The notes beneath the pieces are model-generated. The model had not been told where the DNA came from. It did not search any database and worked only from the letters and a program-made list of their open reading frames with translations. The position numbers and the translations under genes were made by a program. A DNA stretch of 64,000 nt from a virus, in the IMG/VR virus record IMGVR_UViG_3300047552_001889, positions 64,001-128,000 of that record. One strand, written 5' to 3'. Below, one piece after another: positions 22,794 through 53,993 of the stretch. The first letter of the stretch is position 1. Each line of letters opens with the position of its first letter.

Positions 22794-24020
22794 ATGAACA
22801 ATTTATTTATCCCAGAAAAAATTAAGGTAGGATTCCAGGAGAGAAAAGACACCTACACAGGAAAATTAGCTTATGTAGTTTACTACAAGAAGAACAAGCT
22901 AATGAAAGAGAAATCATGGAAAGGTTGGTGTACATTCCCAGGTGATACTAAGAATGGAAAGTGGGAAGGAAGAAGCTATGTTGTCACAGAAACTCATGGT
23001 GATGATATGAAACCTATTGATTTTGAAAACGTTCCAACTGAAGGCTTCGTTCTTAATAAAAAAGTGGGTGGATATAAGTCTGACTGGAACTTTAGACAAA
23101 CATACTGCAGAGTTTATGACCCAAGAGGTTTCGAATTCGAAATCAATATTCCAAATTTGCTGTTTATTCTTCAGGAGTGTAATGCCTACAAGGGTAAGGG
23201 CCTAGAGGGTGAATTTGTCTATGCTTGGGATGGAGCTGACCTCGTTTTGCTTCCAGCTCACTGCAAGGAATATCAAGACTCTATTAAGCATACCAAAATA
23301 CAATTTCAAAACATTGGAGTTAAAGACTTGGAGCCAGGGTGCTATTACAAAACTAAAGACCAGCAGAATGAATACATGTACCTTGGTAAGTTTAATTACA
23401 TTAATCAGAATTATAAAGGAAGTGGTAAAATAGATAAGACTCATGTATTTTACAATCCGAAAGGAGGAGATAGTTATTGGACACCTAAATTTATGGGTAT
23501 GACAAGTCTTTCAACACTTGCTACTAAGATGAATGATGTGGCGGTTCCAGATTTCGCTGAGAAGCTTGAAGAGTTTTCTAAGAGCAAGTGGTCAGGTAGT
23601 ATTTCTGAACTAACAACAACAGTTGCTAAGATAAAATTTCCAAAAGAAGGAACATCAGATTATAAAAGCCGTTATGATTATTTTTGGGGTAGAGATAGGT
23701 ATAATACAGAAGTTCAAAGAAAAAAATTAGATATTGTTTTTCTTAAAGAATCTGATAATTTATATAGAGTTTATACCATTTATGCCCACAGACAACTTAA
23801 GAGTGGAAAAGGTTATGGATACTCCAAAAGTGACTACAGTCATTGGTATACTATATCATCATCTAAGGTTATTTGTCTTGATAATGGAGAATTAATCACC
23901 AAGTCAAGAAAGTTTTCAGATGAAAAGATATATAGTGAAGAGGAAATTAAAGAAAAAGGTTTCGTAATAGTTCACTATTCTCTAAACGGCAAATCTACAC
24001 ACAATCCAGTTTTAGCATAA
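22794..24020 (+). CDS. Conserved phage protein, tandem paralogue A, 408 aa
   Basis: Starts LFIPEKIKVGFQERKDTYTG and has SWKGWC, GFVLNKKVGGY, CRVYDPRGFEFEI and GLEGEFVYAWDG. I recognise this as a family of unknown function found in large phages. It is clearly paralogous to the next gene, sharing all these blocks. The C-terminal 130 residues differ more. A 1-base overlap joins the two. Confidence 0.7.
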   Translation: MNNLFIPEKIKVGFQERKDTYTGKLAYVVYYKKNKLMKEKSWKGWCTFPGDTKNGKWEGRSYVVTETHGDDMKPIDFENVPTEGFVLNKKVGGYKSDWNFRQTYCRVYDPRGFEFEINIPNLLFILQECNAYKGKGLEGEFVYAWDGADLVLLPAHCKEYQDSIKHTKIQFQNIGVKDLEPGCYYKTKDQQNEYMYLGKFNYINQNYKGSGKIDKTHVFYNPKGGDSYWTPKFMGMTSLSTLATKMNDVAVPDFAEKLEEFSKSKWSGSISELTTTVAKIKFPKEGTSDYKSRYDYFWGRDRYNTEVQRKKLDIVFLKESDNLYRVYTIYAHRQLKSGKGYGYSKSDYSHWYTISSSKVICLDNGELITKSRKFSDEKIYSEEEIKEKGFVIVHYSLNGKSTHNPVLA

Positions 24021-25186
24021 TGAAGTCACAATTATTTATACCAGATAAAATTCGTGTAGGATTCCAGAGAAGAGAAGACACATACACGAAGAAGCTTGCC
24101 TATGTAATATACTATGGTTCAGATGGAAAGCTTAGAAAGGAAACATCTTGGAAAGGGTGGTGTCATATTCCTGGAGAGAAAAAAGGTAAGTGGAGCAGTC
24201 AAGTTGTTGAAGATGACCCAGAACTTATGCCATTTGACCTAGACAACAAGCCACATAGCGGATTTGTGCTCAATAAAGGAGTGCAAAGATATGGATACTG
24301 GGGTAATGGTAGGAATATGATTCGTGTCTATGATGACAGAGGAATTGAGTTTGAAATAACAACGGATAACTTGATGTTCATATTGATGACTACAAACTGT
24401 CACAAGAGAGGTCTTGAAGGTGAGTTTGTATATGCATGGGCTGGTAAGGATTTAATATTACTACCAACTGGGTGTGAAGAGTATAAAGAATCGGTTGAAT
24501 ACACTGGCCTACAAACCAAAAAAATTGGGGCAAAAGACATGGTTCCAGGTTGCGCCTATACCAATAAGAATAAAAAGAAACTCATTTATCTTGGCAGGTT
24601 TAATTGGTATGAGAATATTAGATATTGGAGGTCTAAGTCAAAAGGAAATATTGATATGAAGAAGCATCACATATTCAAGCAAGAAGACTCAAAGCAAGAT
24701 GAATATGTGATAATGGATAGTTTTGCTAAGTTAGCAACAAAAGATACAGATGTGCCAGTATCTAACTATGCTGAATTGATTGAAGAGTTTTCAAAAGCTA
24801 AGTATGCTTCTTTACCAATTGGTTTTGAAAGTAATGTTGTAATTCCAGACTGGAGTCTTGAAAGTGAAGACCAGTGGCATGATAAAGTTTTTGGAAGTAA
24901 TCTGTTCATAAAGCATGATGAAAACAACTATACCAAAGTGAGAATTTGTGTAGACCGAAAATATAATTACGAGACAAAAAAATATGAAATTGAAAGGGGT
25001 TATTACATAAGTAATGAAAGAAAATATACTCTTCTGGATTCAAATAATTTTAAGTATGAGTGGGATTGGAATAATAGTTATGATAATAGGAAATACTACA
25101 CAAAAGAAGAGCTAAAAAGCTTGATTTTTTATGAAATTTTTATTAAATTAGATAGTGGTAGATTGGTCAGAATAGACCAATATTAA
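24020..25186 (+). CDS. Conserved phage protein, tandem paralogue B, 388 aa
   Basis: Shares LFIPDKIRVGFQRREDTYT, SWKGWC, GFVLNKGV, RVYDDRGIEFEI and GLEGEFVYAW with the gene before it. The first 260 residues align without large gaps, the last 120 have diverged in both. The pair arose by an old tandem duplication. Function unknown. Confidence 0.7.
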   Translation: MKSQLFIPDKIRVGFQRREDTYTKKLAYVIYYGSDGKLRKETSWKGWCHIPGEKKGKWSSQVVEDDPELMPFDLDNKPHSGFVLNKGVQRYGYWGNGRNMIRVYDDRGIEFEITTDNLMFILMTTNCHKRGLEGEFVYAWAGKDLILLPTGCEEYKESVEYTGLQTKKIGAKDMVPGCAYTNKNKKKLIYLGRFNWYENIRYWRSKSKGNIDMKKHHIFKQEDSKQDEYVIMDSFAKLATKDTDVPVSNYAELIEEFSKAKYASLPIGFESNVVIPDWSLESEDQWHDKVFGSNLFIKHDENNYTKVRICVDRKYNYETKKYEIERGYYISNERKYTLLDSNNFKYEWDWNNSYDNRKYYTKEELKSLIFYEIFIKLDSGRLVRIDQY

Positions 25187-26083: not shown

Positions 26084-26704
26084 ATGAATTCAACTGACAT
26101 ACAAAATAGACTTAGTGAATTATTTAGCAATCATGACCATCATTTCAGAAATAAATATATTTTTGATAGTGATTGGGAGTCGGATTATTTCTCAGTAACA
26201 AAATCAGGATACCTTTGTGAGGTTGAAATAAAAATTTCTAAGTCAGACTTTCAAGCTGACTTCATTAAATTTAAACACAAGCTATTTGAGGGTAGAAATG
26301 AGAAAGAAGTTATTAAGGAGGCTAAATACAGATGGAGTAAGCGTTGGAAGAAAAATGTAAAAAAAGCTCCAGAGAAAAAGGTAAATCCACAAGAGATTAA
26401 AATGCCAAATAGATTTTATTTTGCGTGTCCAGATGGGTTAATTGATATTAAAGACGTTCCTGAATACGCAGGTTTAATATATGTAACAGATAGTTTTCAT
26501 ACAACTAAGATTGTTAAACAAGCGCCTCTTCTACACAAAAGAAAAGAAGATATTAAGGAACTTCTATTTTCTAAATATCAATGGGGATATATAAATGTAA
26601 AAAATGAATTTGAAATTATGTGCAGAGGTCTTGAAAAGAAATTCAACCTTCCACATAATTCCGTAAATTCAATTTCCTCATTCAATAAGCTAGTAAAAAA
26701 TTAA
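26084..26704 (+). CDS. PD-(D/E)XK nuclease-like protein (MmcB-type), 206 aa
   Basis: The core reads ESDYFSVTKSGYLCEVEIKISKSDF: Asp34, then Glu48-Ile-Lys50, matching the D…ExK catalytic pattern, with the trailing KxSKSDF typical of MmcB-like proteins. A second strand-rich block NRFYFACPDGLI and AGLIYV follows. Such proteins act in DNA repair or recombination. Metal-dependent DNA cleavage is inferred. Confidence 0.65.
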   Translation: MNSTDIQNRLSELFSNHDHHFRNKYIFDSDWESDYFSVTKSGYLCEVEIKISKSDFQADFIKFKHKLFEGRNEKEVIKEAKYRWSKRWKKNVKKAPEKKVNPQEIKMPNRFYFACPDGLIDIKDVPEYAGLIYVTDSFHTTKIVKQAPLLHKRKEDIKELLFSKYQWGYINVKNEFEIMCRGLEKKFNLPHNSVNSISSFNKLVKN

Positions 26705-26714
26705 CAAAATTTTT

Positions 26715-26743
26715 TGAAACATAATCAAAAAATTAACGTATAA
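26715..26743 (+). promoter_or_regulatory. Phage-type promoter
   Basis: TGAAAC (26715-26720), 16 bases, CGTATAA (26737-26743). It drives the glucosaminidase gene with a 32-base leader to ATG 26776. Confidence 0.8.
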
Positions 26744-26775
26744 TGTTTGTTTTAAGCATTATAAATAAAAAAGTT

Positions 26776-27411
26776 ATGCATAAAAATTTAAAAAATATTT
26801 TAATACCAGTATTTGTATTGGTATCATCTCTGATTTTGATGTCATTCTATGTTGATGACATATCGAAAAACAATATTGGAAACAGTATTAATTTTAATAT
26901 TGACTTATTAAATCAAGATTCTATTGAAATTGCAATCAACAAAAGAGACAGTCTGGTACAAGACTCTATATTTGGAACTTACAAGTCTGATGCAGACTTA
27001 TTCTTAAGTAGAGAGATTTTCAATGGAACTCCTATAACTGGAGATGTTCTCTTTAAGTGTGCAAAGAGGGTCTACGACTCAACAAATGTGTTTGTGCCTC
27101 TTGAGTTGGTTCTGGCTCAAGCTCAGCTTGAGTCTGGAATGGGAAAGGTTAAGAATTCCAAGTACAAAAACAACTTCTTTGGGATAATGGATGGTGGGAA
27201 CCTGAAAAGATTCAAGACTGTTGAAGATGGTATTGAAGGTTACTACATGCTGATGAGTACAAAGTACTTAAGATGCAAGACTGTGGATGAACTCCTAAGA
27301 AACTTTACAAATTGTGGTGGAAAGAGGTATGCTTCAGAAACTTATGAGGCAAGCATTAGAAAGCAATATCACACAGTTAAGAGTTGGATTAGAAATAATC
27401 GAGAATCTTAA
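26776..27411 (+). CDS. Glucosaminidase-type peptidoglycan hydrolase with N-terminal membrane anchor, 211 aa
   Basis: The C-terminal domain (about residues 85-211) has FVPLELVLAQAQLESGMG (catalytic Glu119 expected), NNFFGI (132-137), a KTVEDGIEGYYM repeat and CGGKRYA: the FlgJ/glucosaminidase family, which cuts the glycan chain of peptidoglycan. Residues 8-25 form one hydrophobic helix after a basic start, either a signal peptide or a SAR-type anchor. Likely the phage endolysin or a virion lysin. ATG 26776 is used because an upstream in-frame ATG at 26743 lies inside the -10 box. Confidence 0.85.
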   Translation: MHKNLKNILIPVFVLVSSLILMSFYVDDISKNNIGNSINFNIDLLNQDSIEIAINKRDSLVQDSIFGTYKSDADLFLSREIFNGTPITGDVLFKCAKRVYDSTNVFVPLELVLAQAQLESGMGKVKNSKYKNNFFGIMDGGNLKRFKTVEDGIEGYYMLMSTKYLRCKTVDELLRNFTNCGGKRYASETYEASIRKQYHTVKSWIRNNRES

Positions 27412-27418
27412 CTTATTT

Positions 27419-27447
27419 TGTAACATTTTTCTATTACATCCGTATAA
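27419..27447 (+). promoter_or_regulatory. Phage-type promoter for ncRNA 1
   Basis: TGTAAC (27419-27424), 16 bases, CGTATAA (27441-27447). The next feature is the terminal stem of a non-coding RNA starting 6 bases on, not a gene. Confidence 0.8.
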
Positions 27448-27452
27448 ATACT

Positions 27453-27566
27453 GAATAAGAGCTTGAGGTATCACTACAAAGCACAATTACCCGATTGGTC
27501 TGGCGAGGTATCTTATAGAATGCACAATTACCCACAAGGTCAGCCATAAGCTCTTATTCTTTTTTT
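27453..27566 (+). ncRNA. Structured small RNA with two tandem 40-nt modules (unknown family)
   Basis: About 114 bases with no plausible ORF, bounded by a phage-type promoter and a T-run. The ends form a perfect 12-bp stem: GAATAAGAGCTT (27453-27464) with AAGCTCTTATTC (27548-27559), followed by seven Ts. Inside are two direct repeats (27465-27504 and 27505-27545), each GAGGTATC, 8-9 variable bases, GCACAATTACCC, four variable bases, GGTC. In each module GGTA can pair with TACC, enclosing the conserved GCACAAT. Variable loops with constant blocks suggest a selected structure. Target or partner unknown. It could also act as a leader of the next gene, but the T-run should end transcription. Confidence 0.75.
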
Positions 27567-27577
27567 AACTCAATAAG

Positions 27578-28042
27578 ATGGGAAATAAAAAGGAGAATTT
27601 TGAAGTCATTGAAGTTCCAGCATCTGGAAAGCGTGATTGGTTTGGTGGCGCTTGGTGTCTTGTTTGGGTTTACTCTAAGTCTGGAAACTTCCTGCTTAAG
27701 GGCTACCGAAATGAGTGCGAAGACTACATTAAGTCAAAGGGTTGGTCATGTTGGGCTATCTACAATCTATATGGTAGATATGGTCACAGAACCGTGTTGC
27801 TGACTTATAATTGTGACTTTGAAATCTCTAATCCGTCAAGGATGTCTAAGAAGAAAACATCAGAAGACTTCAAGTACAAAATCTACAGAAAGGGTAACTA
27901 CAGGGGTGCGATTAATGTGAAGAGATTACCCAAGGTTTTCGTCAACTTCAATCCACCGTATGAAAATGTAGTTCCAAATTCCCTTGGTAGCATGGATGCG
28001 CTTAAGTCCTTGAGGGATAATATGGACCAAAACAACAGATAA
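27578..28042 (+). CDS. Hypothetical protein, 154 aa
   Basis: Not recognised. Trp/Gly-rich first half (WFGGAWCLVWVYSKSG), basic second half. Follows ncRNA 1 by 11 bases; no separate promoter seen. Confidence 0.6.
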   Translation: MGNKKENFEVIEVPASGKRDWFGGAWCLVWVYSKSGNFLLKGYRNECEDYIKSKGWSCWAIYNLYGRYGHRTVLLTYNCDFEISNPSRMSKKKTSEDFKYKIYRKGNYRGAINVKRLPKVFVNFNPPYENVVPNSLGSMDALKSLRDNMDQNNR

Positions 28043-28265: not shown

Positions 28266-29303
28266 ATGAATATACTAAACGACAACGGCAAATACACATT
28301 TTATAACTCACTAAAAATTGAAGATAAGCTTGAAACTAAGAACTACATCTTCAACTGTGACGAATATGGTAATTGCTGGCTTGAGGATGCTGAGTCATTT
28401 AAGGTTCCAGAAAAAATATATGATATAAGCTCTGGCTTTAGACAAGATGTTTTGAAGTCATTCAATCACTATCAGAGGAATCTTGGAGTTCTTTTAACTG
28501 GAAATAAGGGTCAAGGTAAGTCATTGACTGCAAAACTTCTTTGCAGAGAAATGAATATGCCAATCATCATCATTAATAAGTCAATTCCTAAGTCTGTTAA
28601 CTTTGTTCGATTCTTCAATAACATCAAGCAAAATCATTGCATCTTTCTGGATGAGTTCGAAAAGCTCTTCTCAACATACAGTGCTACTAATGAAAACGAA
28701 TTCCATGGACAAGAAGTATTTCTTTCATTTATGGATGGTGTTCTAACAAATGAGCATAAGACACTTTTCTTGCTTACAACGAATGATAGCGTGAATGAGT
28801 ACTTCATGAACAGGCCATCAAGAATCAAGTTCCTTAAGGAATATGATGAGCTTGACGAGGAAATATTTAACATGATTGTTGAGGATAAACTTCAAAATAA
28901 GGAGTTCCAGAAAGACCTTGAGGACAGTGTTTCTCTTGTGAACTTGAACATTGACCTTCTCATATCAATCATTGATGATATTAACCTATTCAATCGACCA
29001 TTTTCTGAATTTAAGGACAACTACAACTATAAGCTTGAAAACTTTAAGTATGAGGTTTCTATAGTTCAGGATAAATCTGAAAAGTTTGAAGGATACTATT
29101 CATCTAAGAGAAAGGTAAGAAACACAGACACATATCTTCATCATCATCAGGTTACTGATTTCTTGAAATTTACCAGAGAAGAAATTATCTTCACTTCTTT
29201 TGAGTGGGATGAAGATGAGCATGGTAATGAAATCAAGAAGGATATTGTAGTAAGGATGACATTGTGTTCAAATAAATACACTGTTACTAACGCATATTCT
29301 TAA
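28266..29303 (+). CDS. AAA+ ATPase, 345 aa
   Basis: Walker A GNKGQGKS (residues 79-86), Walker B HCIFLDEFEKLF (124-135), sensor 1 LLTTND (169-174) and an RPSRIKF segment (183-189) that could hold the arginine finger. The first 70 residues and the last 130 have no recognised domain. AAA+ proteins of this kind remodel protein or DNA complexes; the target is unknown. The separate acidic C-terminal domain may be its substrate-binding part. Confidence 0.8.
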   Translation: MNILNDNGKYTFYNSLKIEDKLETKNYIFNCDEYGNCWLEDAESFKVPEKIYDISSGFRQDVLKSFNHYQRNLGVLLTGNKGQGKSLTAKLLCREMNMPIIIINKSIPKSVNFVRFFNNIKQNHCIFLDEFEKLFSTYSATNENEFHGQEVFLSFMDGVLTNEHKTLFLLTTNDSVNEYFMNRPSRIKFLKEYDELDEEIFNMIVEDKLQNKEFQKDLEDSVSLVNLNIDLLISIIDDINLFNRPFSEFKDNYNYKLENFKYEVSIVQDKSEKFEGYYSSKRKVRNTDTYLHHHQVTDFLKFTREEIIFTSFEWDEDEHGNEIKKDIVVRMTLCSNKYTVTNAYS

Positions 29304-53820: not shown

Positions 53821-53834
53821 TTTTTATGTTTATT

Positions 53835-53863
53835 TGTAACATTTTTATATAGTTTACGTATAA
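53835..53863 (+). promoter_or_regulatory. Phage-type promoter for ncRNA 2
   Basis: TGTAAC (53835-53840), 16 bases, CGTATAA (53857-53863). Followed by a non-coding RNA, not a gene. Confidence 0.8.
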
Positions 53864-53869
53864 CAAAGC

Positions 53870-53993
53870 TCAAGCAGGTGTTAAGGCGCTCCAGGTGTGT
53901 CAAGACTGCATCCCGAAAGGGTATACAAACCTTGGTCCGATGCTGGAATTATACGTGGCAAGGTGAGAGCAATCCTCATGCTTGCCTTTTTTT
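53870..53993 (+). ncRNA. Structured small RNA with intrinsic terminator (unknown family)
   Basis: About 124 bases without an ORF between a phage-type promoter and a T-run. The 3' end is a terminator: GGCAAG-GTGAG (53957-53967) with CTCAT-g-CTTGCC (53975-53986), then seven Ts. Inside, GCATC (53908-53912) pairs with GATGC (53939-53943), extended by CCA/TGG, and encloses CCC-GAAA-GGG, a GNRA tetraloop hairpin (53912-53921). CAAGCA at the 5' end (53871-53876) is complementary to TGCTTG inside the terminator (53979-53984), so two exclusive folds are possible. GC content is above the local average, typical of structured RNA. It is not a tRNA: no TΨC arm or acceptor stem fits. Confidence 0.7.

What the first reader, a model, noticed from the sequence alone, without database searches (positions are those of the whole stretch)
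27453..27566. Structured ncRNA 1: 12-bp closing stem and two tandem 40-nt modules
A phage-type promoter drives a 114-base RNA with no ORF. Its ends form a perfect 12-bp stem followed by a T-run, and the interior has two copies of GAGGTATC…GCACAATTACCC…GGTC with divergent loops. The repeated modules suggest two copies of a binding site, for a protein, a host RNA or a small molecule. I do not recognise the family.
Basis: partly seen in the sequence, partly recalled or inferred. Interest (0 to 1): 0.82.

Follow-up and report, generated by a model that had tools for sequence, protein, structure and literature searches.

The report
Phage two-module structured leader RNA
Just in front of an uncharacterised basic-protein gene, this bacterial virus makes a ~114-base folded RNA with two copies of one hairpin; a related virus keeps the same fold with paired compensating mutations, so it is a real, apparently undescribed RNA that most likely binds the protein encoded next to it.

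Summary
Window 27453-27566 has a perfect 12-bp closing stem, a T7 tract and two copies of GAGGTATC...GCACAATTACCC. Neither the stem-plus-T-run nor the repeat pair appeared in 30 shuffled genomes. The decisive evidence is a homolog at the syntenic place in a related phage (record G003, two further records identical there). Of 27 shared pairs, 6 changed on both sides, 1 on one side and none is broken, although third codon positions of the neighbouring ORF are only 39% identical. 'GGTC' is part of P2, not of the module. The RNA forms the 5' leader of gene 27578-28042 in both phages, which encodes a basic orphan protein (pI 9.5-9.7). No Rfam family matches. Best model: the two hairpins bind the downstream protein, repressing or neutralising it, an anatomy like AbiF-RCd22 and type III toxin-antitoxin RNAs but with unrelated RNA and protein. 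The RNA and its structure are well supported; partner and function are inferred.

The parts
27418..27447 (+). Promoter TTGTAACATTTTTCTATTACATCCGTATAA; predicted start near 27453, i.e. at the first base of P1
   Evidence: One of about 32 copies of a genome-wide promoter motif; a similar sequence (AGAACATTTGG..CGTATAA) lies upstream of the homologous RNA in G003
27453..27464 (+). P1 5' arm (12 bp)
   Evidence: Perfect complement of 27548-27559; two double compensatory changes against G003
27465..27492 (+). Module/hairpin 1: GAGGUAUC-loop-GCACAAUUACCC; stem GGUA 27467-27470 with UACC 27488-27491
   Evidence: Same hairpin in independent folds of both homologs; A-U to G-C compensatory change
27496..27504 (+). 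P2 5' arm (UGGUCUGGC), helix enclosing module 2
   Evidence: Pairs with 27539-27546; two double compensatory changes and one G-U/G-C against G003
27505..27533 (+). Module/hairpin 2: GAGGUAUC-loop-GCACAAUUACCC; stem GGUA 27507-27510 with UACC 27529-27532
   Evidence: As module 1, with its own A-U to G-C compensatory change
27539..27546 (+). P2 3' arm (GUCAGCCA)
27548..27559 (+). P1 3' arm
27560..27566 (+). U-tract; with P1 a possible terminator/attenuator
   Evidence: T7 here; U-rich but interrupted (UUUAUUUUUAU) in G003
27578..28042 (+). Downstream gene, 154-aa basic orphan protein (pI 9.5), probable functional partner
   Evidence: Orthologue at G003 80853-81284, 42-48% identical, also directly downstream of the RNA; no family match

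Best explanation
A structured 5' leader RNA that pairs functionally with the gene behind it. Shown by sequence comparison: a ~114-nt RNA (P1, hairpin 1, P2 enclosing hairpin 2) is under selection for its fold. It sits between a phage promoter and the same small basic-protein gene in two diverged phages. Inferred: each GAGGUR...GCWCAAUYACCC hairpin is a binding site for that basic protein, so two molecules, or a dimer, bind one RNA. P1 with its U-rich tract 16-18 nt before the start codon acts as an attenuator. Most transcripts would end there as a short RNA, or translation would be blocked, and the RNA would limit and/or neutralise the protein in cis and perhaps in trans.
For: The homologous RNA lies at the syntenic locus in G003. 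27 pairs are shared by independent folds: 6 double compensatory, 1 single, 0 broken. With 13 substitutions placed at random in paired columns, no simulation of 200,000 kept all pairs. RNA identity is 70%, against 56% for the ORF and 39% at its third codon positions. The promoter-RNA-ORF unit stayed together although the gene upstream of the promoter differs (26743-27411 has no match in G003). No match to the promoter motif was found between RNA and ORF, and other promoters of this family mostly lie 5-33 nt before their genes. Both proteins are strongly basic and rich in aromatic residues. The two modules changed in concert (A-U to G-C, first loop base U to C, GCA to GCU), as expected for two sites read by one partner. 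The experimentally studied phage-encoded AbiF system has the same anatomy: promoter, ~100-nt RNA with two hairpin motifs, terminator, no second promoter, protein gene; its RNA binds and neutralises the protein (PMC12373285).
Against: No transcript or binding data exist. Only two distinct RNA sequences are known. The protein has no recognisable RNA-binding fold, and the models are of low confidence. The U-tract is weaker in G003, so termination may not be conserved. Concerted change of the modules could also come from gene conversion. A free sRNA acting elsewhere cannot be excluded.
Confidence: 0.45

Rival explanations
1. A stand-alone small RNA with its own promoter and terminator acting in trans, on host or phage RNA or as a protein sponge. 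Linkage to gene 27578 reflects only shared transcription.
For: Predicted start and P1-T7 end match the folded unit exactly; a second, apparently free-standing ncRNA gene with a strong terminator exists at ~53862-53992 in the same genome; conserved loop sequence GCWCAAU could pair with a target.
Against: Directly upstream of the same orphan gene in both phages, 16-18 nt from its ATG, with no other promoter found for it; the module occurs nowhere else in either genome; the U-tract is degraded in G003.
Confidence: 0.2
2. A riboswitch: two tandem aptamers sense a small molecule and switch the P1 terminator/start region of gene 27578.
For: Leader position, tandem equivalent modules, stem with U-tract before the start codon.
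Against: No Rfam riboswitch match; the regulated gene is a small basic phage protein rather than a metabolic or transport gene; only two lineages.
Confidence: 0.13
3. A type III toxin-antitoxin-like pair: the 27578 protein is an RNA-cleaving toxin and the RNA is its antitoxin.
For: Promoter, two ~41-nt repeats, terminator-like element, ~150-aa gene with no own promoter, the arrangement described for type III systems (PMC5086642).
Against: No ToxN/CptN/TenpN/AbiQ/AbiF similarity, no HEPN R4xH motif. Long-range P1 and P2 conserve the RNA as one fold instead of separable repeats. The terminator surrounds the repeats instead of following them.
Confidence: 0.14
4. Leader peptides or uORFs: G003 reads MLNHP...LLNHP... 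(29 codons) and G000 reads MHNYPQGQP (9 codons) through the modules.
For: Open frames exist in the modules.
Against: Start codon and frame are not conserved (one-base indels; no ATG in G000 module 1). Substitutions preserve base pairs, not codons; the phage shows no Shine-Dalgarno use.
Confidence: 0.03

Closest known systems
AbiF-RCd22 RNA (Rfam RF03085; phage-encoded system of Clostridioides difficile, PMC12373285)
   Same: Short structured RNA with two copies of a 33-37-nt hairpin motif in the leader of a phage protein gene, terminator before the gene, no second promoter
   Different: No match to RF03085; downstream protein is unrelated (no Abi_2/HEPN match, much smaller); here the two hairpins are joined by conserved long-range helices P1 and P2
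Type III toxin-antitoxin RNAs (ToxI, CptI, TenpI, antiQ; reviewed in PMC5086642)
   Same: Tandem repeats of about 34-45 nt between a promoter and a small protein gene
   Different: No toxin homology; no pseudoknot shown; repeats folded into one RNA by P1/P2; stem encloses the repeats
Autogenous phage leaders such as T4 gene 32 (PMC535899)
   Same: Phage mRNA leader structure thought to be bound by the protein it encodes
   Different: Different RNA, protein and phage; two hairpins in place of a pseudoknot
Tandem-aptamer riboswitches (e.g. glycine, guanidine-II; from memory)
   Same: Two similar modules in a leader with a terminator-like element
   Different: No covariance-model match; no metabolic gene

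Membership tests
abiF RNA / AbiF system (RF03085) | Match to the abiF covariance model | tested here: not met
   No Rfam match up to E 5 or at gathering score
abiF RNA / AbiF system (RF03085) | Downstream Abi_2/AbiD/F HEPN protein with R4xH motif | tested here: not met
   No Pfam, PADLOC or NCBIfam match to 27578; no R4xH in either orthologue
abiF RNA / AbiF system (RF03085) | RNA binds and neutralises the downstream protein | not testable with these tools
   Needs gel shift and co-expression assays
Type III toxin-antitoxin | Promoter, tandem nucleotide repeats, terminator, then gene, in one operon | tested here: inconclusive
   Order is similar, but the terminator-like stem encloses the repeats
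Type III toxin-antitoxin | Toxin of the ToxN, CptN or TenpN families | tested here: not met
   No family or PDB sequence match; fold inconclusive
Type III toxin-antitoxin | Repeats processed to pseudoknotted monomers by the toxin | not testable with these tools
   Conserved P1/P2 across the repeats argues against independent monomers
Any Rfam family, riboswitches included | Covariance-model match | tested here: not met
   None in the window at gathering score; none at 27400-27620 up to E 5
Structured RNA under selection | Covarying base pairs in homologs | tested here: met
   6 double compensatory pairs, 0 broken of 27 shared, between two diverged phages

The most novel reading that the evidence does not exclude
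A new kind of phage RNA-protein pair: a two-hairpin RNA family and a cognate small basic protein family, both unrelated to ToxIN, CptIN, TenpIN and AbiF, forming a ribonucleoprotein that regulates or neutralises the protein.
Probability: 0.3. Interest if true: 0.75.

Novelty: new variant of a known kind. Interest (0 to 1): 0.55.

Why it matters
It adds an apparently undescribed, covariation-supported RNA structure coupled to an orphan protein family in large phages of probable Bacteroidota hosts. If the RNA binds its neighbour protein, RNA antitoxin-like or autoregulatory leaders would have arisen again from unrelated parts. The pair is small and can be tested directly in vitro.

Tried and rejected
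Exact-pattern scans of viral contigs and genomes gave, beyond the homolog, only coding repeats or chance matches; the covariance model confirmed none among the loci rescanned. Protein scans found only the G003 lineage. Weak model hits (L124 672-775, 21 bits; window 63763, 17 bits) were judged chance. 395 Bacteroidota genomes gave no RNA or protein match; this has no positive control and shows only absence in that sample. Two AlphaFold models of the protein were low-confidence (pLDDT ~54) and their fold matches meaningless. The GAGGU = Shine-Dalgarno idea was rejected: GAGGT precedes none of 244 ORFs. Coding of the modules was rejected. A CAAUU/GAUUG hairpin in module 1 was rejected because module 2 cannot form it.

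Full report
Setting. The window is bases 64001-128000 of a 140,950-base virus record. Its DNA ligase is closest among named phages to Cellulophaga phages phi17:2 and phi4:1 (54% identity). Its genes show no Shine-Dalgarno enrichment. Both fit a phage of a Bacteroidota host, but the host is not proven. The nearest relatives found are IMG/VR records G003 (168,582 bases), G001 and G049, which share one RNA sequence. Their ligase is about 81% identical, but most other shared proteins of G003 are roughly 35-75% identical.

Observation. Neither the stem-plus-T-run nor the double repeat appears in 30 shuffled genomes. The promoter belongs to a genome-wide family TTGWAACA-N15-CGTATAA. About 32 copies were found, usually 5-33 nt before an ATG; here the distance is 130 nt.

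Homology and structure. Synteny maps window 26084-26704 to G003 80015-80674 and window 27578-28042 to G003 80850-81266. The 176-base gap between them in G003 holds a homologous RNA. Folded separately, both sequences give P1, hairpin 1, P2 and hairpin 2. On a hand alignment of the two, 27 pairs coincide: 20 identical, 6 changed on both sides, 1 changed G-U/G-C, none broken. Randomly placing the 13 paired-column substitutions never kept all pairs intact in 200,000 trials. A caveat: the pairs were taken from folds of the same sequences, which favours intact pairs. But the compensatory changes fall in all four helices and include GGUA/UACC to GGUG/CACC in both modules. The RNA is 70% identical, while third codon positions of the adjacent ORF are 39% identical, so the RNA is strongly constrained. 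With only four module sequences, the tool's column shuffle for the 4-bp hairpin alone is not significant (80 of 500). The case rests on the whole structure.

Anatomy. P1 starts at about the expected transcription start. Hairpin 1 is a 4-bp stem with a 17-nt loop. P2 (27496-27504 with 27539-27546) encloses hairpin 2, with an 18-nt loop. The loop ends in GCWCAAU in all four copies. Changes specific to each phage occur in both modules together. GGTC is part of P2. The stem ends 18 nt (G000) or 16 nt (G003) before the ATG of the downstream gene.

Partner gene. 27578-28042 encodes 154 residues, pI 9.5 (orthologue 143 residues, pI 9.7), and the two orthologues are 42-48% identical. No significant Pfam, PHROGs, NCBIfam, PADLOC or PDB match was found. 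Structure models are too weak to use. In G000 the gene before the promoter (26743-27411, glucosaminidase-like) has no match in G003, while promoter, RNA and ORF stay together. The conserved unit is therefore promoter-RNA-ORF.

Function. Because the ORF has no other visible promoter in either phage, its mRNA should carry the RNA whether it starts at this promoter or further upstream. I therefore prefer a leader that binds the encoded basic protein at two sites and limits its expression or activity. The anatomy is that of the phage-encoded AbiF-RCd22 system, where the RNA with two motifs acts in cis by termination and in trans by binding the protein (PMC12373285). It also resembles type III toxin-antitoxin loci (PMC5086642). 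Membership of either fails on sequence: no RF03085 match and no related protein. It may work like them, but it is not filed as one of them. Riboswitch and free sRNA readings remain open.

Distribution. Covariance model R1 finds the RNA convincingly only in G000, G001, G003 and G049 among 48 phage records, and not in 395 Bacteroidota genomes. The single-module model finds no further copies in G000 or G003. Metagenome contigs could not be searched.

Verdict. A genuine, apparently undescribed structured RNA with covariation support and a conserved link to an orphan protein gene; mechanism inferred, moderate interest.

Noticed in passing
window 53834-53992: A second ncRNA-like gene: same promoter type, ~130 nt without ORF, strong GGCAAG/CTTGCC terminator with T7. 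No significant Rfam match, no homolog in G003. The next gene has its own promoter, so this one looks free-standing.
   Followed up: partly
whole record G000; e.g. window 835, 14800, 27418, 53834, 63314: A promoter motif TTGWAACA-N15-CGTATAA occurs ~32 times, mostly 5-33 nt before ATGs, and more rarely in G003; it may be the signature of a phage-specific or host sigma factor.
   Followed up: partly
window 22794-25186: Two adjacent paralogous genes (408 and 388 aa), both matching phrog_2475 of unknown function.
   Followed up: no
window 28266-29303: AAA-type ATPase not found in the nearest relatives G001/G003 but with distant matches in many other phages.
   Followed up: no
L124 520-620, minus strand (G003 ~140.5 kb): Sequence resembling a tRNA gene, followed by a hairpin with T-run; not checked with ARAGORN.
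   Followed up: no
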